This document shows positions 1 to 25,389 of a stretch of DNA of 64,000 nucleotides, piece after piece. The stretch comes from Methanosarcina sp. (lineage in GTDB: Archaea; Halobacteriota; Methanosarcinia; Methanosarcinales; Methanosarcinaceae). A program made the translations under genes and the position numbers. The notes under the pieces were generated by a model. It was not told where the DNA came from. It searched no databases and saw nothing but the letters and a program-made list of their open reading frames with translations. The DNA is taken from the NCBI RefSeq assembly GCF_028693135.1, contig NZ_JAQUVZ010000014.1, forward strand, positions 1 through 64,000. Reading direction: 5' to 3'. The number at the start of each line of letters is the position of its first letter. Positions within the stretch are counted from its first letter, which is position 1.

Positions 1-263
1 CTTTTAATACTGGTTTTGTGATGGATTTGAGCAAGCCCAATTACTTTAGAACCATTTAAGATAGCTAAACCTGTGTGTCGGCTTCCATAGTCTATTTTTA
101 ATCGGAATTCAGCTTTATTTTCGGAATATTTCAACTCTTTTAGTCTAATTGTGAATGGATATTTTTTATGTATAATAGCCTTTCCTGTTTTCAGCAATTT
201 TCTGGCAACTGCTGAATGACAGGGGCTTAACGGTTGTTTATTTTTGTTTAATACAAAGATCAT
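1..263 (-). CDS. iscB: IscB RNA-guided nuclease, N-terminal part (runs off left edge)
   Basis: Translating the minus strand from the ATG at 263 gives 87 residues with no stop before the window edge. The start MIFVLNKNKQPLSPCH and the following ARKLLKTGKA stretch match the N-terminal PLMP domain of IscB. LKIDYGSRHTGLAIL near residues 60-74 is the RuvC-I motif with its catalytic Asp. IscB is the IS200/IS605-linked nuclease ancestral to Cas9: it uses an omega-RNA encoded just upstream of its gene to cut a guide-matched target. The HNH and later RuvC motifs lie outside the window, so intactness cannot be judged. The 260 bases upstream fit an omega-RNA. Confidence 0.9.
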   Translation of the reverse strand, partial: MIFVLNKNKQPLSPCHSAVARKLLKTGKAIIHKKYPFTIRLKELKYSENKAEFRLKIDYGSRHTGLAILNGSKVIGLAQIHHKTSIK

Positions 264-289
264 AATTGAATTTCTCCGATCTCAGAAGT

Positions 290-526
290 AAGATAAATCC
301 TGCTTCCGGTAACGCACTTTCGTGTCTCCTCTCGCTAATGTTGGAAATGCTTGTTAAGCATAATACACCGTTCCTACCCTACAGAACTTTTAATATTATA
401 CAACAGAGCTACAAGCTGAGGAAGCACCTGCAGGTGTTATGACAAATCCAACGTAGTCAATTAAGACTTAAGCTGGTCAACCAAAGCACTATTACATGCC
501 TGCCAATTTATTGGCGGGTAGTTGAC
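290..526 (-). ncRNA. Presumed IscB omega-RNA and element left end
   Basis: This non-coding stretch lies directly upstream of iscB on the same strand, where omega-RNAs of IscB loci are encoded. Read on the minus strand it opens with GTCAACTACC, has an inner hairpin (gccaat/attggc), then TGGTTGACCAG, so GTCAAC can pair with GTTGAC. It later contains GTAGGAACGGTG and CATTAGCGAGAGGAG. The same ordered blocks occur at 17840-18077, which supports a conserved RNA. If the scaffold starts at 526, the guide would be read from flanking DNA at about 527-542. The ends are estimated, not mapped. Confidence 0.6.
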
Positions 527-795: not shown

Positions 796-848
796 AAAAG
801 TGGGCCCGCTGAGATTCGAACTCAGGACCTCCGCCGTGTGAAAGCGAC
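796..848 (-). repeat. Attachment-site copy: 3' fragment of tRNA-Val
   Basis: Bases 796-848 match 5488-5540 at 52 of 53 positions (A at 843, G at 5535), in the same orientation. The matched part covers the 3' end of tRNA-Val(CAC): T arm, variable region and 3' side of the anticodon stem-loop. The remaining 5' half of the tRNA is absent here. An intact tRNA at one end and a detached 3' fragment at the other is the standard footprint of a tyrosine-recombinase-integrated element, so this is the distal attachment site. Confidence 0.85.
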
Positions 849-1261
849 TTTAAGCCCGTATCTTTCGAAAAAGAGCCAGTATCGGGCGAATATTATATTT
901 TTAATCTCTCGAAACCGGGGATTCCTCAAAAATTTACTATCGTAATAACCATGCAAGTGTCCAGAAAATAGGTCGTTCTCACAGGGCATGGCACAGTTTT
1001 TCGCACAGTTTTTCTTGCTTCGTATCTTCTATCTTTTTTTCGGGGTGGTCGCACGCAATTTGATTTTTCTGTATTCTCCGGAAGCAGCTTGATGTTTAAC
1101 CTGCTATTCTCCTAGATCAAGGTTTGAATATGGATCGCTTGTTTGTGCCTGGCTTCATTTAGTTTTTCGATCTGTTCCTCCTTTGCGTATAAATGATAAT
1201 GTTTATGTTAGTTTACAGTCGATTATGGACAATTTAATATTTCAAATAAAGGACATAGGTT
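849..1261. other. Island left margin; no gene seen
   Basis: Between the attachment-site fragment and the first island gene I find only short frames on both strands, none with a convincing start or domain. An integrase would be expected beside an attachment site, but none is recognisable here. The last 60 bases are AT-rich and probably hold the promoter of the next gene. Confidence 0.45.
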
Positions 1262-2410
1262 ATGGCACTACGGGAAACATATGAAAAGGCAAGACAACAT
1301 AAATTATTGATATGGGTTACTATTGTTTTTGCTGTTTCTTTTGTACTTATTGCCTTATTCCTTAGTTATTTAGTATTCACATATCCTGTAAATCAAGTAT
1401 CTCAATATGGAATAACAAATGCAACAGAAAAAGCTAATTTAATTAATCAATATCGTACAACTTCAATTCAATTCATTGCTACATTAGCCCAAATATTAGG
1501 TGGCATTGCTGTCGGGATTGGAATTTATTTCGCTTGGAAAAATCTTAAAATTGCTCAAGAAGGTCAGATAACTGAACGTTTCACTAGAGCTATCGACCAG
1601 TTAGGAAATGATAAATTAGAAATTCGTTTAGGTGGAATATATGCACTTGAGAGAATCGCAAATGAATCTGAGAAAGATTACTGGCCAATTATGGAAATTT
1701 TAACGGCCTATATTAGGGAAAATTCATCCCTCGAAAGTGATAATATCAAACATGAAGACATTAAAAACCAAAATAAGATCTCTTTAGATATTCAAGCAAT
1801 TCTCACTGTTATAAGAAGACGCAAGCATTTCTTTGAATTTGGAGAACCCGATCGTTTAGATCTACACAGAACTAATCTACAAGAGGCTAATCTCCGAGGA
1901 GCTACCCTTAAAGGAGCTGATCTTCGAGGAGCTAATCTTCAAGGAGCTGATCTTCGAGATACTGACTTTTCAAATACTGATCTCATAATGGGTAAAGAAG
2001 CTGATCTTCAAGGGGCCAATCTTCGAGGGGCTAACCTTCGAATGGCGGATTTTCAAGGAGCTAACCTTATAAATGCTGACCTTCGAAAGGCTTTCCTTTT
2101 AGGAACTTACCTGTTAGGGGCTGACCTTCAAGGAGCTAAGCTTCAAGAGGCTGACCTTATGGCAGCTTATTTTAGAGGTGCTGATCTTATGGCAGCTAAC
2201 TTTCAAGGGGCTGATCTTCGAGGGGCTAACTTTCAAGGAGCTCGCAATTTGTTACTTGACCAGCTTTCTAGAGTGAGAACACTTAAGGACACAAAGTTTG
2301 ACGAAGAGATCCTCATATCATTAAAAGAAAAGTACTCTGACCTTTTAGAAGCGCCATCAGAGCTAGAGCAATCATTCAAAGATCTCCAAAAATACGAGGA
2401 GCAGGAATAA
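1262..2410 (+). CDS. Membrane-anchored pentapeptide-repeat protein
   Basis: The 382-residue product has two likely membrane segments (about residues 18-40 and 71-92). A conserved linker (about 98-190, with ERFTRAIDQLG, IRLGGIYALERIA and DYWPIMEILTAYIR) follows. Residues about 200-325 are pentapeptide repeats of the A(D/N)L(R/Q)(G/E) type, which fold as a right-handed quadrilateral beta-helix. The start ATG follows AAAGGA at a reasonable distance. From the linker onward the protein closely matches the C-terminal third of the KAP NTPase at 2680-5232, at DNA level too, so the two arose by duplication. The gene lies in the tRNA-bounded island and is AT-rich compared with the core genes. Function is unknown. 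Confidence 0.85.
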   Translation: MALRETYEKARQHKLLIWVTIVFAVSFVLIALFLSYLVFTYPVNQVSQYGITNATEKANLINQYRTTSIQFIATLAQILGGIAVGIGIYFAWKNLKIAQEGQITERFTRAIDQLGNDKLEIRLGGIYALERIANESEKDYWPIMEILTAYIRENSSLESDNIKHEDIKNQNKISLDIQAILTVIRRRKHFFEFGEPDRLDLHRTNLQEANLRGATLKGADLRGANLQGADLRDTDFSNTDLIMGKEADLQGANLRGANLRMADFQGANLINADLRKAFLLGTYLLGADLQGAKLQEADLMAAYFRGADLMAANFQGADLRGANFQGARNLLLDQLSRVRTLKDTKFDEEILISLKEKYSDLLEAPSELEQSFKDLQKYEEQE

Positions 2411-2679
2411 AAACAATATTTTAGGTCAACACGTTGCTATTCTTCCGATTGCGATAGTGTGTTAAATTTACTATATGATAATTCTTGAATTTATGGTTTT
2501 AAGGAGCTTCAAATAGAAATCCTCTTATAGATTTTATATTGAATATTGAAGAAGGATACTATTTTTCCGGAACTTAGGTATAGAAAGCTTAGACCCTAGG
2601 AAATTTACCCATTACTTATCATGAATTCAAATTAGCAATTAAGCTGAATTCTCTTGATAGTCTATAAATCAAAACGAGT

Positions 2680-5232
2680 ATGGACATGTCTGAAAGCTTA
2701 TGTTGTGATACTCCAACAAATAAGGATTTGCTCGGATTCAAACCATATGTTGAGGCTATCGCAGATTTTCTTACCCATGAGGATACTGAAGCTCCAATCA
2801 CTCTTTCTATTGAGGGCCAGTGGGGATGTGGTAAATCATCTTTCATGAAACAATTGAAAGAAGAAATAGAAAAACGAAATGAATCCAAGAAAAGGAAGAA
2901 GTATTTCACTGTATGGTTCAATAGCTGGAGATATGAAAAAGAGGACGAGTTGTGGGCTGCTTTTGCACTCAGTTTAATGGATCAGTTGTCAGAGCAACTT
3001 TCCCCACTGCATCTACTGTTGGCGCAATTTAAATTGAGATATCTTAGACTTGGGTTTAAGAGGAAAGGTAAAAATTCAATTTATTTTACCATTCCTTTAT
3101 TTATTTCTGCTTTGTATGTTTTATTCGTTTATTCTGTTCCAAAAGTTCGGGAAATATTATCTTCAAACCCTGATATAATGTCATATTCTGTAGTTGGATC
3201 ATTATTTAGTGCTTTATTAGCACTGACAGGAGTTCTACTCACTATAACTCCAACATTGCGCATTGTAAAAGACATTAAAGACGCGATTGTGAATCCTTTC
3301 GATTTCAGTAAATTTGTATCCAATCCAGATTACACGGAACACATATCTTTCATAGAGAATTTTCATACAGATTTCGGTAAGATTATAAAATCCTATGCCG
3401 AAAATTCAAGAGTTTATGTTTTTGTCGATGACCTGGACCGCTGTGAAATACCAAAAGCTGCGGAACTCATGCAGGCTATAAACCTGATGATCTCTGATGA
3501 AGCAAATATTTATTTTTGCATAGGTATGGACAGAAGAGTCATTTCTGCGGGAATCGCTTCAAAGCATGAAAACTCTTTTAAATATCTAGCTAACAGCGGA
3601 CTGGAATATGGGTATGAGTTTATTGAAAAATTCATCCAGCTCCCTTTTAAAGTACCCAGCCCTAAAAATGAGAATTTTAAGGATTTTATAACCACTCCTT
3701 GTGACGAAATGAGACGTTTCTCGAAAACTCCAAGGTCATATGTTAATCTAAGTAAGATATTAGATAAACTAAGACTTCCTCGGCCTAGTCAATTACCCGA
3801 TAATAAAAATGTCCAATCTGGACATAATCCAGATATTGTACAAGATGAAAAGATTTATGAGGAAGTCGTAAAGGAAAAATCAAACGAAGAGAAGAAAATC
3901 CTGAACTATCAAGATTGTAGTGAGTCACCAGAAACTTTGAAATATATTCTTGAATTGGTTGCTTCTGCCCTTGATCGAAACCCTCGACGTATAAAACAAT
4001 TCTTGAATATATTTCGTTTTCAGAGGACAATCGGATTTAAGATCGGACTTTTTTCTTATACGGAAGGAACAAATCCTTCCGAAATGTGGAACTGTAAAAA
4101 ACTTGCAAAATTTGTGGCAATAAGCATAAAGTGGCCTTATCTGATTTCTGCTTTGAGTTCAAACACAAATCTTCTCGACCAATTACAAAAACACGCATTG
4201 ACAGATCTGAAAAATGAGGCTAAGGAACTAGGACTAGATCTGAATCAAGGATATCAAGAAAAATGGATGAAAGATGAAAGGCTGATTGAACTTTTGAAGA
4301 TCGGGTGTATGGAGGATGAAAATATTCTGCCAAATATAGATGAATATAGCCTTTCAAACCTTGATTTTACAAAATTATTACAGATTTCACCTGTAGTCAT
4401 CCCCACTTTTCCATCCTTTACTCGTGATAATCTAAAAGTTGCTCAAGAAGGCCAGATCACCGAACGCTTCACTAGGGCTATTGACCAGTTAGGAGCTATT
4501 GATAAATTAGGAAATCCAGCAATAGAGATTCGATTAGGTGGAATATATGCCCTTGAAAGAATTGCAAATGAGTCTGATAAAGACTATTGGCCAATTATGG
4601 AAATTTTAACTGCTTATATTAGGAATAACTCCCCCAGCAAAAGCGAGAATATAAATGCTAAAGATTTTAAAAGCCAAAACAAAGTATTTTTGGATATTCA
4701 AGCAATTCTTACCGTCATCGGAAGACGCAAGTATTACTATAACGCTGGAGAATTCAATTGTTTAGAGCTGCAAAGGACTTATCTACGAGAGGCTGATCTT
4801 CGAGAAGCTAACCTGAAGAGGGCTGATCTTCGAGGAGCTGACCTGAAGGGGACTGATCTTCAAGGGGCTGACTTAACAGGGGCTAACCTTAGAGATACTA
4901 ACCTTCAAATATCTTATCTTCGAGTAGCTGACCTGAAGGGGGCTAACCTTGAAGAATCTAACCTTCAAGGGGCTGATCTTCAAGGGGCTAACCTTGAAGA
5001 GGCTAACATGGGGAGGACTAACCTTAGAGGAGCTAACCTTAAAGGGGTAGACTTTGAAAAGGCTAACCTTGAGGGAGCTGATCTTGAGGGAGCTGATCTT
5101 GAAGGGGCTAAGAATTTAACAGTTGACCAGCTTTCTAAAGTGAAGACACTTTATAATGCAATATTAGACAAAGAGCTCGAAATACCATTAAGAGAGAAGT
5201 ACCCCGCTCTTTTTGAAAAACCTGATGAATAA
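2680..5232 (+). CDS. KAP family P-loop NTPase fused to a pentapeptide-repeat module
   Basis: 850 residues. Walker A is GQWGCGKSS (46-54); Walker B is VYVFVDDLDRCE (245-256). Two membrane segments (about 135-152 and 168-190) lie between them, the hallmark of KAP NTPases. DRNPRRIKQFLNIFRF (431-446) is the family's C-terminal NTPase motif. Residues 582-690 repeat the linker of the upstream gene (AQEGQITERFTRAIDQLG) and about 696-815 are pentapeptide repeats. KAP proteins are membrane ATPases facing the cytoplasm; PifA, which excludes phage T7, belongs to the family. An antiviral role here is inference from the family and the island setting. ATG at 2680 is chosen because the Walker region follows at the usual distance; the ribosome binding site is weak. 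Confidence 0.9.
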   Translation: MDMSESLCCDTPTNKDLLGFKPYVEAIADFLTHEDTEAPITLSIEGQWGCGKSSFMKQLKEEIEKRNESKKRKKYFTVWFNSWRYEKEDELWAAFALSLMDQLSEQLSPLHLLLAQFKLRYLRLGFKRKGKNSIYFTIPLFISALYVLFVYSVPKVREILSSNPDIMSYSVVGSLFSALLALTGVLLTITPTLRIVKDIKDAIVNPFDFSKFVSNPDYTEHISFIENFHTDFGKIIKSYAENSRVYVFVDDLDRCEIPKAAELMQAINLMISDEANIYFCIGMDRRVISAGIASKHENSFKYLANSGLEYGYEFIEKFIQLPFKVPSPKNENFKDFITTPCDEMRRFSKTPRSYVNLSKILDKLRLPRPSQLPDNKNVQSGHNPDIVQDEKIYEEVVKEKSNEEKKILNYQDCSESPETLKYILELVASALDRNPRRIKQFLNIFRFQRTIGFKIGLFSYTEGTNPSEMWNCKKLAKFVAISIKWPYLISALSSNTNLLDQLQKHALTDLKNEAKELGLDLNQGYQEKWMKDERLIELLKIGCMEDENILPNIDEYSLSNLDFTKLLQISPVVIPTFPSFTRDNLKVAQEGQITERFTRAIDQLGAIDKLGNPAIEIRLGGIYALERIANESDKDYWPIMEILTAYIRNNSPSKSENINAKDFKSQNKVFLDIQAILTVIGRRKYYYNAGEFNCLELQRTYLREADLREANLKRADLRGADLKGTDLQGADLTGANLRDTNLQISYLRVADLKGANLEESNLQGADLQGANLEEANMGRTNLRGANLKGVDFEKANLEGADLEGADLEGAKNLTVDQLSKVKTLYNAILDKELEIPLREKYPALFEKPDE

Positions 5233-5391
5233 TTGAGTATTACCAGAACTTTCACCAATATTTCCTTATTCCGGGTGCTTCTAAAGATTTCAGATTGATT
5301 AATGGGAAATTATCATCGAGATAACTTTTTCAGTGAAATAACTTGGTCCACGGTATTTATAAAAATTTATGATTTTGAAAGTGCACATTAA

Positions 5392-5547
5392 AGTTACACA
5401 ACTCGAAGAAAATCTGACCTCAAAGCAAGAATAGAAGCACTAGAAAAGAAGCTCAATACGCTTTTAGAATCCGAAAAACAATTAATAAAAAGTGGGCCCG
5501 CTGAGATTCGAACTCAGGACCTCCGCCGTGTGAAGGCGACGTCATAA
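5392..5547 (+). pseudogene. Possible integrase C-terminal remnant reading into the tRNA gene
   Basis: An open frame of 51 codons with no start codon begins after a TAA at 5389-5391. It encodes a charged coiled-coil stretch (DLKARIEALEKKLNTLLESE) and then runs antisense through the tRNA-Val gene as SGPAEIRTQDLRRVKATS before TAA at 5545-5547. Proteins ending in such tRNA-derived tails are often integrases whose genes overlap the attachment site. No catalytic residues of a tyrosine recombinase are present, so this is a weak call. It could also be chance openness of the antisense tRNA. Confidence 0.3.
5488..5540 (-). repeat. Attachment-site copy inside intact tRNA-Val
   Basis: This is the partner of the repeat at 796-848 (52 of 53 bases identical, direct orientation). 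Here the sequence is continuous with the 5' half of the tRNA, so the gene is functional. The two copies delimit a segment of about 4.7 kb. Confidence 0.85.
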
Positions 5548-5566
5548 CCGGCTAGACCACGAGCCC
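5493..5566 (-). tRNA. tRNA-Val (anticodon CAC)
   Basis: The minus strand folds as a cloverleaf. The acceptor stem is GGGCTCG/CGGGCCC, the anticodon stem TCGCC/GGCGG closes loop TTCACAC with anticodon CAC, and the T arm is CTGAG-TTCGAAT-CTCAG. The discriminator is A and no CCA is encoded. It decodes the valine codon GUG. Its 3' half is the attachment site of the island to its left. Confidence 0.93.
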
Positions 5567-19022: not shown

Positions 19023-19664
19023 ATTAGCCAAGAAGAATTACTTCAGGAACTTGCAGGCGCTGTAATTTCCTGTAAAAAGGATGCGGTACTCGCTGCCGTT
19101 GAAAAGGCAAAAGGAGAACTGGACCCCGCATTAATTATCGAAAAAGGGCTTGCCGCAGGCATGAATGAAGTGGGTGTTCTCTTTGAGAGAGGCAAACTTT
19201 TCTTACCCCACGTGATGATGGCTGCCGACGCAATGACTGCCGGAGTTGCAGCTCTTAAGGACCTTATGCCTGAAGGCGCTTCCAGCGCAAAAGTAGCCGT
19301 CATTGTGAACGGTACTGTAGAAGGCGATGTCCATGACATCGGTAAATCAATCGTGTCCACAATGCTCCAGTCTGCTGGTTTTGAAGTGCATGACATCGGC
19401 CGTGATGTCCCAATCAAGAACTTCATCCAGAAGGCAAAGGAAGTCAATGCTGATATGATCGGGCTTTCCGCTCTTATGACCACAACTCTTCCCGGACAGA
19501 AAGGGGTTATCGAACTCCTCAAGGAAGAAGGTATGAGGGAAAAAGTAAAGGTCATGATCGGGGGCGCACCAGCAACCCAGGCATGGGCTGACAAGATCGG
19601 CGCAGACTGTTACGCAGAAAACGCAAGTGAAGCCGTTGCAAAGGCAAAAGAACTGCTCGTTTAA
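19023..19664 (+). CDS. mtbC: Dimethylamine corrinoid protein MtbC (apparent AUU start)
   Basis: 213 residues. The N-terminal helical cap domain is followed by a B12-binding domain with GDVHDIGKS (axial-ligand His104), SALMTTT and a C-terminal [16 protein letters not shown]. MtbC receives the methyl group from dimethylamine via MtbB and passes it toward coenzyme M. The ribosome binding site GGAGG (19011-19015) stands 7 bases before ATT (19023). [10 protein letters not shown] from that ATT matches the usual MtbC N-terminus, where Met replaces Ile. The next in-frame ATG (19161) would remove 46 residues of the cap domain and there is no GTG or TTG before it. It is the first gene of the operon. 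Confidence 0.88.
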
Positions 19665-19689
19665 ATTATTTTTATTCGGAGGTTACAAA

Positions 19690-21177
19690 ATGGCAAAATG
19701 TAATGCAGTTGCAGGATTCAACGCACTTAACGGTGTGGAATTAAACCTTTTTACTAACGACGAACTTAAGGCAATTCACTACGCCTCAATGGAAGTTCTG
19801 ATGGACCCCGGTGTCCAGGTCTCCGACCCGGAAGCCAGGCAGATCTTCAAGGAAAACGGCTGTGAAGTTGACGAAAAGACTCAGATTGTAAAGATCCCTG
19901 AATATCTTGTAAGAAGAGCTCTTCAGCTCGCTCCATCCAGATTTGTCCTCTGGGGCCGCGACAAGAAATTCAACACTGTGCAAGAAGCCGGCGGTAAGGT
20001 TCACTGGACCTGTTTCGGTACTGGCGTTAAGATGTGCAAGTACCAGGACGGGAAGTACGTAACCGTTGACTCCGTAGAACAGGACATTGCAGACATCGCA
20101 AAACTCTGTGACTGGGCAGAAAACATCGACTACTTCTCTCTCCCGGTTTCTGCAAGAGATATTGCAGGCCAGGGTGCCCAGGATGTCCACGAAACCTTTA
20201 CTCCTCTTACCAACACCGCAAAACACTTCCATCACATTGATCCAGTCGGCGAAAACGTCGAATACTACTGGGACATCGCAAAAGCTTACTACGGCGGTGA
20301 CGGAGAAGAAGCCAGGAAGAAGCCAATTTTCTCAATGCTCCTCTGCCCAACCAGCCCTCTCGAGCTCAGTGTCAACGCCTGCCAGGTCATCATTAAGGGT
20401 GCCCGCCTCGGCGTCCCCGTAAACGTCCTGAGTATGGCAATGTCCGGTGGTTCTTCCCCTGTATACCTTGCAGGAACCCTGGTTACTCACAACGCCGAAG
20501 TACTCTCAGGTATCACTCTCGCTCAACTCACAGTACCCGGAACCAAAGTCTGGTACGGAAGTTCCACAACCACCTTCGACCTGAAGAAGGGTACTGCTCC
20601 TGTCGGATCTCCCGAACTCGGCCTGATCAGCGCATCTGTCGCAAAGCTCGCCCAGTTCTATGGCCTCCCCGCATTCGTGGCAGGCACCTAGTCTGATGCA
20701 AAGATCCCTGACAACCAAGCTGGACACGAGAAGACCATGACCTGCCTCCTTCCCGCCCTCGCAGGGGCAAACACCCTCTACGGCGCCGGGATGCTTGAGC
20801 TTGGTATGACTTTCTCTATGGAACAGCTAGTTATTGACAACGATATCATCAAGATGACCAAGAAGGTCCTGCAGGGAGTCCCTGTCAATGAGGAAACCCT
20901 CGCAGTCGAGTCTATCCAGAAAGTAGGCATAGGAAACAACTTCCTCGCCCTCAAACAGACCAGGCAGCTTGTGAACTACCCCTCCGACCCTATGCTCATC
21001 GACAGGCGCATGTTCGGTGACTGGGCAGCAGCAGGCTCCAAGGACCTTGCAGCCGCTGCACACGAAAAGGTTGTAGACGTTCTCAAGAACCACGTAGTTA
21101 AACCAATCGACTCAGACATCCTCAAGGACATGAAGGCAGTTGTCGACAGAGCTGACAAAGCCTTCAGAGGCATGTAA
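19690..21177 (+). CDS. mttB: Trimethylamine methyltransferase MttB with in-frame UAG (pyrrolysine)
   Basis: 495 residues if the amber codon at 20689-20691 is read through; the codon is residue 334, the known pyrrolysine position of MttB. The frame continues without interruption to TAA at 21175, with clear MttB sequence on both sides (LPAFVAGT before, [16 protein letters not shown] after). MttB is a TIM-barrel enzyme that moves a methyl group from trimethylamine to MttC; pyrrolysine is thought to activate the amine. ATG at 19690 follows CGGAGG. It lies 25 bases after mtbC and before mttC. An annotation without UAG readthrough would split it in two. Confidence 0.97.
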
Positions 21178-23985: not shown

Positions 23986-25389
23986 ATGGCAACTGAATAT
24001 GCTTTGAGGATGGGAGACGGGAAACGTATCTTCCTTACCAAAGAAAAGATTGTTGAGGAGATTGAGGCAGGTACGGCTAACGCCGCTGACCTCGGTGAGA
24101 TTCCTGTCCTCAGTGGTAATGAACTTGAAAAGCTTGCAGAAATTCTGATGATGCCCGGAAAGGCAGTCAGTGTTGAGCAGGGCATGGAAGTTCCTGTTAC
24201 CCACGATATCGGTACCCTTCGGCTTGATGGGGACCAGGGCAACAGTGGTGTTGGTATTCCTTCCAGTAGGCTTGTCGGCTGCATGATGCACGAGAGAGCC
24301 TTTGGCGCTGACACCATGGAGCTCGGGCACATTGACTACAGCTACAAACCTGTAAAACCTGTTATCTCAAACGAGTGTCAGACCATGGAAACCTGCCAGC
24401 AGAACATGGTCATCCCTCTCTTTTATGGCGCAATGCCGAACATGGGGCTGTACTACACCCCCGACGGACCCTTCGAAAACCCCGGGGATCTTATGAAGGC
24501 TTTCAAGATTCAGGAAGCCTGGGACTCCATGGAACATGCCGCAGAACACCTCACCAGGGACACCGTATGGGTTATGCAGAAACTCTTTGCCTCCGGGGCA
24601 GACGGGATCAACTTTGACACAACCGCTGCTGCCGGGGATGCAGACATGTACGGGACCCTCCACGCTATCGAGGCTCTCAGGAAAGAATTCCCGAACATGT
24701 ATATCGAAGCCGGGATGGCAGGAGAAATGGTTCTCGGGATGCACGGCAATCTGCAGTATGACGGCGTAACCCTTGCCGGGCTCTGGCCACACCAGCAGGC
24801 TCCTCTTATCGCAAAGGCAGGCGCAAACGTCTTCGGTCCGGTGTGCAACACTAACACCAGCAAGACCTCAGCCTGGAACCTTGCCAGAGCTGTCACCTTC
24901 ATGAAGGCAGCTGTTGAAGTCTCCACTATTCCCTGTCACGTTGACATGGGTATGGGTGTCGGCGGAATTCCGATGCTTGAGACTCCTCCAATAGATGCTG
25001 TTACAAGGGCAAGCAAGGCAATGGTCGAAATTGCCGGCGTAGACGGCATATAGATCGGGGTCGGCGACCCTCTGGGTATGCCGATCTCCCACATTATGGC
25101 TTCCGGTATGACCGGGATCAGGGCCGCAGGCGACCTTGTCGCAAGGATGCAGTTCTCAAAGAACATGAGGATAAAAGACGCAAAAGAGTACGTCGCAAAG
25201 AAGCTCAATGTCGAGACAATGGATCTCTCAGACGAATATGTTATGAGAGAACTCCGTGAAGAGCTTGACATCGGTGTCATCACCTCAGTGCCCGGCGCAG
25301 CCAAGGGCCTTGCCGCAAAGATGAACATCGAGAAGCTGCTCGATGTCAAGATCAACTCCTGCGATCTCTTCAGAAGACAGATTGCTTAA
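23986..25389 (+). CDS. mtbB: Dimethylamine methyltransferase MtbB with in-frame UAG (pyrrolysine)
   Basis: 467 residues with readthrough of the amber codon at 25051-25053, which is residue 356, the pyrrolysine position of MtbB. Before it the frame reads IAGVDGI and after it [19 protein letters not shown], both MtbB sequence, to TAA at 25387. MtbB transfers a methyl group from dimethylamine to MtbC, encoded by the first gene of this cluster. ATG at 23986 follows GGTGAT. Without readthrough the product would lack the last 112 residues, including part of the barrel. Confidence 0.97.

What the first reader, a model, noticed from the sequence alone, without database searches (positions are those of the whole stretch)
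1262..5232. Candidate two-protein membrane system: the same pentapeptide module on a two-helix anchor and on a KAP NTPase
Seen: residues from about 98 onward of the first protein and from about 582 onward of the second are near-identical in their linker and both end in pentapeptide beta-helices. They differ in what precedes: two membrane helices versus a full KAP NTPase with two membrane helices between Walker A and B. Known: KAP NTPases include the phage-exclusion protein PifA, and pentapeptide proteins can mimic DNA or bind proteins. Inference: the two could heteropolymerise through the beta-helix modules at the membrane, one as sensor or anchor and one as ATPase, in antiviral defence.
Basis: partly seen in the sequence, partly recalled or inferred. 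Interest (0 to 1): 0.78.

Follow-up and report, generated by a model that had tools for sequence, protein, structure and literature searches.

The report
KAP ATPase with swapped sensor-slot domain
In a methane-producing archaeon, a membrane ATPase of a family linked to virus defence has lost the lectin-like end domain its relatives carry and has gained instead the pentapeptide module of the gene next to it, within a small mobile island at a tRNA gene; it looks like an exchange of a sensing domain, and its function is untested.

Summary
ORF1 (1262-2410) is a two-helix membrane anchor plus linker plus pentapeptide beta-helix. ORF2 (2680-5232) is an intact KAP NTPase carrying the same linker (74% identity) and a pentapeptide beta-helix.

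The interpretation changes. ORF1-type proteins are common (19 of 31 genomes of the genus, 34 of 339 cyanobacteria), but the KAP-linker fusion was found nowhere else. ORF2's KAP relatives end at the same residue in other domains: an FGE/C-type-lectin domain (9 Methanosarcina-type, 5 cyanobacterial) or GUN4 (2 cyanobacterial). Papers treat NTPase-FGE proteins as putative immune sensors, often diversified by retroelements; I found that signature in archaeal relatives. So the pentapeptide module fills a proposed sensor slot.

Both genes lie in a low-GC 4.6-kb segment between copies of the tRNA-Val 3' end. Related genomes have up to eight such segments in a row. At this site G008 and G011 hold a single ORF1-type gene, whose 5' flank matches ORF1's and whose 3' flank matches ORF2's.

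An obligatory two-protein machine is not supported. Defence by sensor-controlled KAP activation is the best inference, unproven. New variant of a known kind.

The parts
797..848 (.). left direct repeat: displaced copy of the tRNA-Val 3' end (att-like)
   Evidence: 779-848 aligns to 5469-5540 at 90% over 72 nt; last 49 nt of the tRNA 98% identical
1262..2410 (+). ORF1, 382 aa: two-helix membrane anchor + linker + pentapeptide beta-helix + helical cap
   Evidence: N-terminal part 98% identical to the ORF1-type gene at the same site in G008
1304..1528 (+). ORF1 membrane hairpin (residues 15-33 and 71-89)
   Evidence: hydropathy
1541..1855 (+). ORF1 linker domain (residues 94-198), helical, no Pfam model
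1856..2248 (+). ORF1 pentapeptide beta-helix (residues 199-329)
   Evidence: Pfam; AlphaFold2 pLDDT mostly 93-98
2680..5232 (+). ORF2, 850 aa: KAP NTPase + linker + pentapeptide beta-helix
2680..4395 (+). KAP part (residues 1-572); homology to the KAP-FGE family ends at about residue 573-578
2815..2838 (+). Walker A GQWGCGKS (residues 46-53)
   Evidence: invariant in alignment A2
3076..3246 (+). two membrane helices inserted between Walker A and Walker B (residues 133-151 and 171-189)
   Evidence: hydropathy
3415..3441 (+). Walker B YVFVDDLDR (residues 246-254)
   Evidence: conserved in A2
4429..4761 (+). ORF2 linker domain (residues 584-694), replacing the FGE domain of relatives
4762..5229 (+). 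ORF2 pentapeptide beta-helix and C-terminal helical cap (residues 695-850)
   Evidence: cap 81% identical to the ORF1-type genes at the same site in G008 and G011
5492..5566 (-). tRNA-Val(CAC); its 3' end is the right direct repeat (5489-5540)
   Evidence: ARAGORN

Best explanation
ORF2 is a membrane-anchored KAP NTPase whose C-terminal sensor slot has been swapped. Shown: its relatives carry there an FGE/C-type-lectin domain or a GUN4 domain; in ORF2 there is no FGE domain and the linker plus pentapeptide beta-helix of the local two-helix pentapeptide family sits there, joined in frame at the domain boundary. This happened in a low-GC island bounded by copies of the tRNA-Val 3' end, at a site where related genomes hold one ORF1-type gene. 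Inferred: the module docks on a ligand (viral, plasmid or cellular protein) on the cytoplasmic face; binding releases ATP-driven oligomerisation of the KAP domain, which acts on the membrane through the inserted helix pair, in anti-virus or anti-plasmid defence. ORF1 is a separate member of the pentapeptide family that may share a ligand with ORF2 but is not an obligate subunit. The domain swap and island are about 85-90% likely, the sensor role about 50%, defence about 45%; the stated confidence is for the whole chain.
For: KAP homology covers residues 1-576 in relatives and stops there; those relatives end in FGE-sulfatase (2.2e-54, 3.6e-57) or GUN4, also in cyanobacteria. The DGR signature on the FGE domain supports a ligand-binding slot. 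Published: a KAP ATPase may replace the STAND NTPase in NTPase-FGS conflict systems, with FGS proposed as the invader-binding domain (PMC8195603); DGR targets include KAP NTPase-CLec proteins (PMC10907252). Tmn, a KAP NTPase with two TM domains, is an antiphage system (PMC11846954). Island: direct repeats, GC 0.29-0.41 against 0.46-0.48 in flanking genes, comparative arrays. Both linkers are under purifying selection. Longest exact match of the ORF2 module elsewhere in the window is 23 nt, which argues against an assembly chimera.
Against: No activity data. The fusion is known from one genome, so it could be a young, non-functional chimera. No recognised effector domain beyond the KAP NTPase. 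No defence-model match in ten other large ORFs of the window. NCBIfam QatA score is 107 bits against a cut-off of 600. The region beyond the left repeat is cut by the contig start. The ORF2 model is weak at the KAP-linker junction (pLDDT below 50).
Confidence: 0.42

Rival explanations
1. One reading: ORF1 and ORF2 are two obligate subunits that co-assemble through their matching modules at the membrane, one anchor or sensor and one ATPase.
For: Same module, adjacent genes, same predicted cytoplasmic face. In cyanobacteria two linker-bearing genes of different length also often stand in tandem: 10 of 11 regions inspected. The conserved C-terminal helical cap resembles the dimerisation cap of Qnr and MfpA (own knowledge).
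Against: The fusion and the pair were found only here; KAP-FGE loci have no ORF1-type neighbour. A 269-nt gap separates the genes. ORF1-type genes do without a KAP partner. The two modules' caps are only 50% identical and the linkers are not sisters in the tree, with weak support.
Confidence: 0.13
2. No special function: homologous recombination inside a tRNA-Val island shuffled domains of resident and incoming genes; the chimera is nearly neutral or has a general membrane role.
For: ORF1 itself is a mosaic (N-terminal part 98% to G008, C-terminal cap 80% to G025); fragmentary KAP copies exist in other genomes; tandem islands favour module exchange (PMC8371274).
Against: All KAP motifs are intact, both long frames are open, and the linker shows dN/dS of about 0.12-0.15. 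The junction falls exactly at the domain boundary.
Confidence: 0.27
3. Integrated decoy: ORF1-type proteins are targets of an invader factor, and ORF2 is a KAP alarm that carries a copy of that target as bait, as proposed for plant NLR receptors.
For: The fused module is a copy of the local family's module and sits in the slot that relatives use for an FGE domain.
Against: No invader factor known; no second case of the fusion; the linkers of ORF1 and ORF2 are 26% diverged.
Confidence: 0.1

Closest known systems
NTPase-FGS (FGE/C-type lectin) conflict proteins with a KAP ATPase core (PMC8195603, PMC10907252)
   Same: KAP core with C-terminal variable domain; ORF2's nearest relatives have exactly this architecture
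   Different: ORF2 has no FGE domain; linker and pentapeptide beta-helix in its place
Tmn (KAP NTPase with two transmembrane domains; PMC11846954)
   Same: single KAP NTPase with an inserted membrane helix pair
   Different: no Tmn model among ORF2's PADLOC hits; pentapeptide C-terminus
QatA of the QatABCD antiphage system
   Same: KAP NTPase region matches (3.7e-27; 7.8e-31)
   Different: score far below the curated cut-off; no recognisable QatB, QatC or QatD next to it
PifA of plasmid F
   Same: N-terminal KAP region matches (5.4e-20)
   Different: best stretch covers only about 90 of 720 profile positions; different C-terminus
Pentapeptide DNA mimics MfpA and Qnr
   Same: beta-helix fold; Foldseek hits
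   Different: global TM-scores are low; ORF1 and ORF2 are membrane proteins with an extra linker; gyrase binding untested
Tandem integrated elements at archaeal tRNA genes (PMC8371274)
   Same: tRNA 3'-end direct repeats; tandem insertion at one locus; elements without integrase
   Different: here 0.8-16 kb segments, up to eight in a row, recurrent across a genus; no integrase recognised by eye

Membership tests
KAP NTPase family (PF07693) | KAP P-loop domain above the curated cut-off | tested here: met
   127.8 bits against 20
KAP NTPase family (PF07693) | membrane segments inserted between Walker A and Walker B | tested here: met
   hydropathy peaks 133-151 and 171-189; Walker A 46-53, Walker B 246-254
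NTPase-FGS conflict proteins | NTPase core homologous to FGE-bearing members | tested here: met
   47-63% identity in the genus
NTPase-FGS conflict proteins | C-terminal FGE/FGS domain | tested here: not met
   no PF03781 in ORF2; present in relatives
NTPase-FGS conflict proteins | DGR diversification of the FGE domain in relatives | tested here: met
   TR/VR pair in G408: 17/32 A against 0/88 non-A mismatches; KAP-FGE of the same genome 20/32 against 12/88. No template repeat found in the window's own genome
Qat system | QatA above the curated cut-off | tested here: not met
   107.4 bits against 600
Qat system | adjacent QatB, QatC, QatD | tested here: inconclusive
   none recognised downstream; upstream only 1.26 kb before the contig start
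PifA | full-length PifA profile match | tested here: not met
   best stretch 14-103 of 720 positions
Two-protein co-occurring system | the gene pair conserved in other genomes | tested here: not met
   fusion only in this genome among the sets searched: genus 31, phylum 393, cyanobacteria 339, phylum of G409 398
Two-protein co-occurring system | physical interaction of the modules | not testable with these tools
   no multimer prediction offered
tRNA-integrated island | direct repeats of the tRNA 3' end at both ends | tested here: met
tRNA-integrated island | integrase in the element | tested here: not met
   only two long ORFs between the repeats

The most novel reading that the evidence does not exclude
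A KAP immune NTPase has exchanged a retroelement-diversified lectin sensor for a copy of a host membrane protein's pentapeptide module, an archaeal counterpart of the plant 'integrated decoy': the ATPase senses attack on ORF1-type proteins through its own copy of their module. The exchange happened in a tRNA-Val-anchored, integron-like cassette array that reshuffles such genes across Methanosarcina.
Probability: 0.1. Interest if true: 0.85.

Novelty: new variant of a known kind. Interest (0 to 1): 0.5.

Why it matters
It gives a concrete archaeal example, with identifiable parents, of sensor exchange on a KAP NTPase: the same core carries FGE/lectin, GUN4 or pentapeptide ends. That makes the question 'what is the C-terminal domain of these NTPases for?' testable by swapping ends. 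It also brings evidence of retroelement-type diversification of KAP-FGE proteins in Methanosarcina-type archaea and shows a genus-wide tandem island array at tRNA-Val that carries such genes.

Tried and rejected
Recent duplication of ORF1 as source of ORF2's module: rejected, dS about 0.7 and not sisters (weak tree support). Assembly chimera: unlikely, longest shared exact word 23 nt. Viral origin of the linker: no relatives in viral contigs; phage records gave pentapeptide-only matches in the rows listed. KAP-linker fusions on plasmids: linker hits are annotated as pentapeptide proteins and KAP hits as QatA or P-loop NTPases. Known structure of the linker or of this KAP subfamily: none by sequence. 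Foldseek of ORF1 and ORF2: the best hits listed are all pentapeptide-type folds, uninformative for linker and KAP. Two-helix effectors for the ORF1 anchor: only weak hits (2TM_IV 0.014, retron Ec48 2TM effector 0.005), not used. DGR template near the KAP-FGE genes: none within the stretches held; found elsewhere in G408. Reverse transcriptase near that template: none by motif search. The founding KAP paper (Genome Biol 2004) is not in the library, so whether it already lists KAP-pentapeptide fusions could not be checked; a text search for both terms found no relevant paper.

Full report
OBSERVATION. ORF1 (1262-2410, 382 aa) and ORF2 (2680-5232, 850 aa) are present as described. Pfam finds pentapeptide repeats in both and a KAP_NTPase domain at residues 20-446 of ORF2. 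ORF1 has hydrophobic helices at residues 15-33 and 71-89; ORF2 has two at 133-151 and 171-189, between Walker A (46-53) and Walker B (246-254). The shared module starts at residue 94 of ORF1 and 584 of ORF2. The linker is 74% identical, the pentapeptide parts about 50-55% and the C-terminal caps 50%, so 'near-identical' is too strong, but chance is excluded (BLASTP 7e-96). The linker is found only at these two places in the genome. In the first 64 aligned codons dN is about 0.10 and dS 0.65-0.78, so the two copies are old and under purifying selection.

THE MODULE. The AlphaFold2 model of ORF1 (mean pLDDT 83) shows a membrane helix pair, a helical linker and a pentapeptide beta-helix with a helical cap. 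The linker has no Pfam model and no solved relative. ORF1-type proteins occur in 19 of 31 genomes of the genus; in a sample of 393 genomes of the phylum they occur only in the same family (15 genomes); they also occur in 34 of 339 cyanobacteria, in 6 of 398 genomes of the phylum of G409, and on Streptomyces and cyanobacterial plasmids under the name 'pentapeptide repeat-containing protein'. In all these genome searches the only KAP-length frame with the linker is ORF2.

THE KAP PROTEIN. ORF2's residues 1-576 match KAP proteins of 824-903 aa in the same genus at 47-63% identity, one of them in this very genome (contig C79); the match ends at the same point each time. Reading on, those proteins end in an FGE-sulfatase (C-type lectin fold) domain, confirmed by Pfam on a sample. 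The related cyanobacterial KAP proteins end in FGE (five) or GUN4 (two, one of them from the genome-contig scan). ORF2 has no FGE domain: after ...LLQISPVV and about eleven further residues comes the linker. The Methanosarcina KAP-FGE gene sits in a conserved chromosomal neighbourhood next to ribosomal protein genes, usually with a membrane HEAT-repeat gene, and no ORF1-type sequence is nearby.

THE SLOT IS PROBABLY A SENSOR. The FGE ends vary most in their last 40 residues. In the MAG G408 (source of KAP-FGE locus L083, 'Euryarchaeota archaeon BM5_bin.6') a template repeat lies about 200 bp beyond an FGE gene; template and variable repeat differ at 17 of 32 adenines and 0 of 88 other bases, the mark of a diversity-generating retroelement. 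The KAP-FGE protein of that genome differs from the same template at 20 of 32 adenines and 12 of 88 other bases (p = 3.7e-7); the other KAP-FGE proteins show the same bias more weakly, p from 1e-4 to 0.03. No template was found in the window's own genome and no reverse transcriptase was recognised near the G408 template, so active diversification is not shown. Published work places a KAP ATPase among the NTPases of NTPase-FGS conflict systems and proposes that FGS binds invader molecules (PMC8195603), and lists KAP NTPases among DGR targets (PMC10907252). GUN4 is likewise described as a sensor-type domain (PMC7159879). That the pentapeptide module does the same job in ORF2 is inference.

THE LOCUS. 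Window 800-848 is a 98% copy of the last 49 nt of tRNA-Val(CAC) (5492-5566); with flanking bases the match is 90% over 72 nt. The two ORFs are the only long ones between these repeats. GC is 0.375 (ORF1), 0.29 (gap), 0.353 (KAP part) and 0.407 (ORF2 module) against 0.456-0.48 in the genes beyond the tRNA. At the same chromosomal site G008 and G011 have one ORF1-type gene whose 5' flank matches that of ORF1 and whose 3' end and flank match those of ORF2. ORF1's N-terminal part is 98% identical to the G008 gene, its cap 80% to a G025 gene, while ORF2's cap is 81% identical to the G008 and G011 genes. The simplest history is that a KAP gene arrived in this island and recombined with a resident or incoming pentapeptide gene, losing its FGE end. 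The order of events is not resolved.

HOW IT MAY WORK. Topology puts both modules in the cytoplasm, close to the membrane (inferred from hydropathy and charge). I favour ligand binding by the module controlling ATP-dependent assembly of the KAP domain and, through the inserted helices, a membrane effect. Tmn shows that a KAP NTPase with two membrane domains can be an antiphage system (PMC11846954), and PADLOC's QatA and PifA models match ORF2's KAP part, but ORF2 does not reach NCBIfam's QatA cut-off, and ten other large ORFs of the window give no defence hit. Defence is therefore an inference from family.

THE PAIR. Nothing shows that ORF1 and ORF2 work only together. The cyanobacterial regions, where a short linker gene precedes a longer one in 10 of 11 inspected (these regions were chosen because the search showed neighbouring hits), are the best hint that linker proteins can work in pairs; tandem duplication explains that equally well.

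LIMITS. One genome holds the fusion, one genome per species was searched, the contig begins 1.26 kb upstream of ORF1, and the ORF2 model is poor at the junction.

Noticed in passing
genus-wide; e.g. L213-L230, L063-L065, window 797-5566: tRNA-Val(CAC) is followed by tandem arrays of 1-8 segments (0.8-16 kb), each bounded by a 30-50 nt copy of the tRNA 3' end and holding whole ORFs; ORF1-type genes are cargo in six or seven genomes. Integron-like in layout; no integrase recognised by eye.
   Followed up: partly
L202:4222-6489 (G408:C63): Diversity-generating retroelement template/variable repeat pair on an FGE-domain protein in a Methanosarcina-type MAG: 17/32 adenine and 0/88 other mismatches; reverse transcriptase not located.
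   Followed up: partly
L165/L166 C-termini: Two closely related cyanobacterial KAP-FGE proteins, highly similar otherwise, differ strongly in the last 40 residues, as DGR targets do.
   Followed up: no
L154-L164: Cyanobacterial linker-pentapeptide genes often stand as a tandem pair, a short (about 205-300 aa) gene before a 490-507 aa two-helix gene.
   Followed up: partly
window 3-526: Start of an ORF on the minus strand that reads like an RRXRR/IscB-type protein, cut by the contig end; the stretch 308-526 upstream of it is 84% conserved at C79 and in G008, possibly its guide RNA region.
   Followed up: no
window 19627-20691 and 23986-25053: Trimethylamine and dimethylamine methyltransferase ORFs stop early relative to their profiles (to 337 of 500 and 353 of 463), as expected for in-frame TAG read as pyrrolysine.
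   Followed up: no
L215/L216 (G007) and L224 (G027): The largest segment of the tRNA-Val array in these two genomes holds genes that read like type I restriction-modification subunits; not checked by profile.
   Followed up: no
L073-L080, L083: The KAP-FGE locus is syntenic across Methanosarcina and usually has a membrane protein with HEAT repeats upstream, a possible partner.
   Followed up: partly
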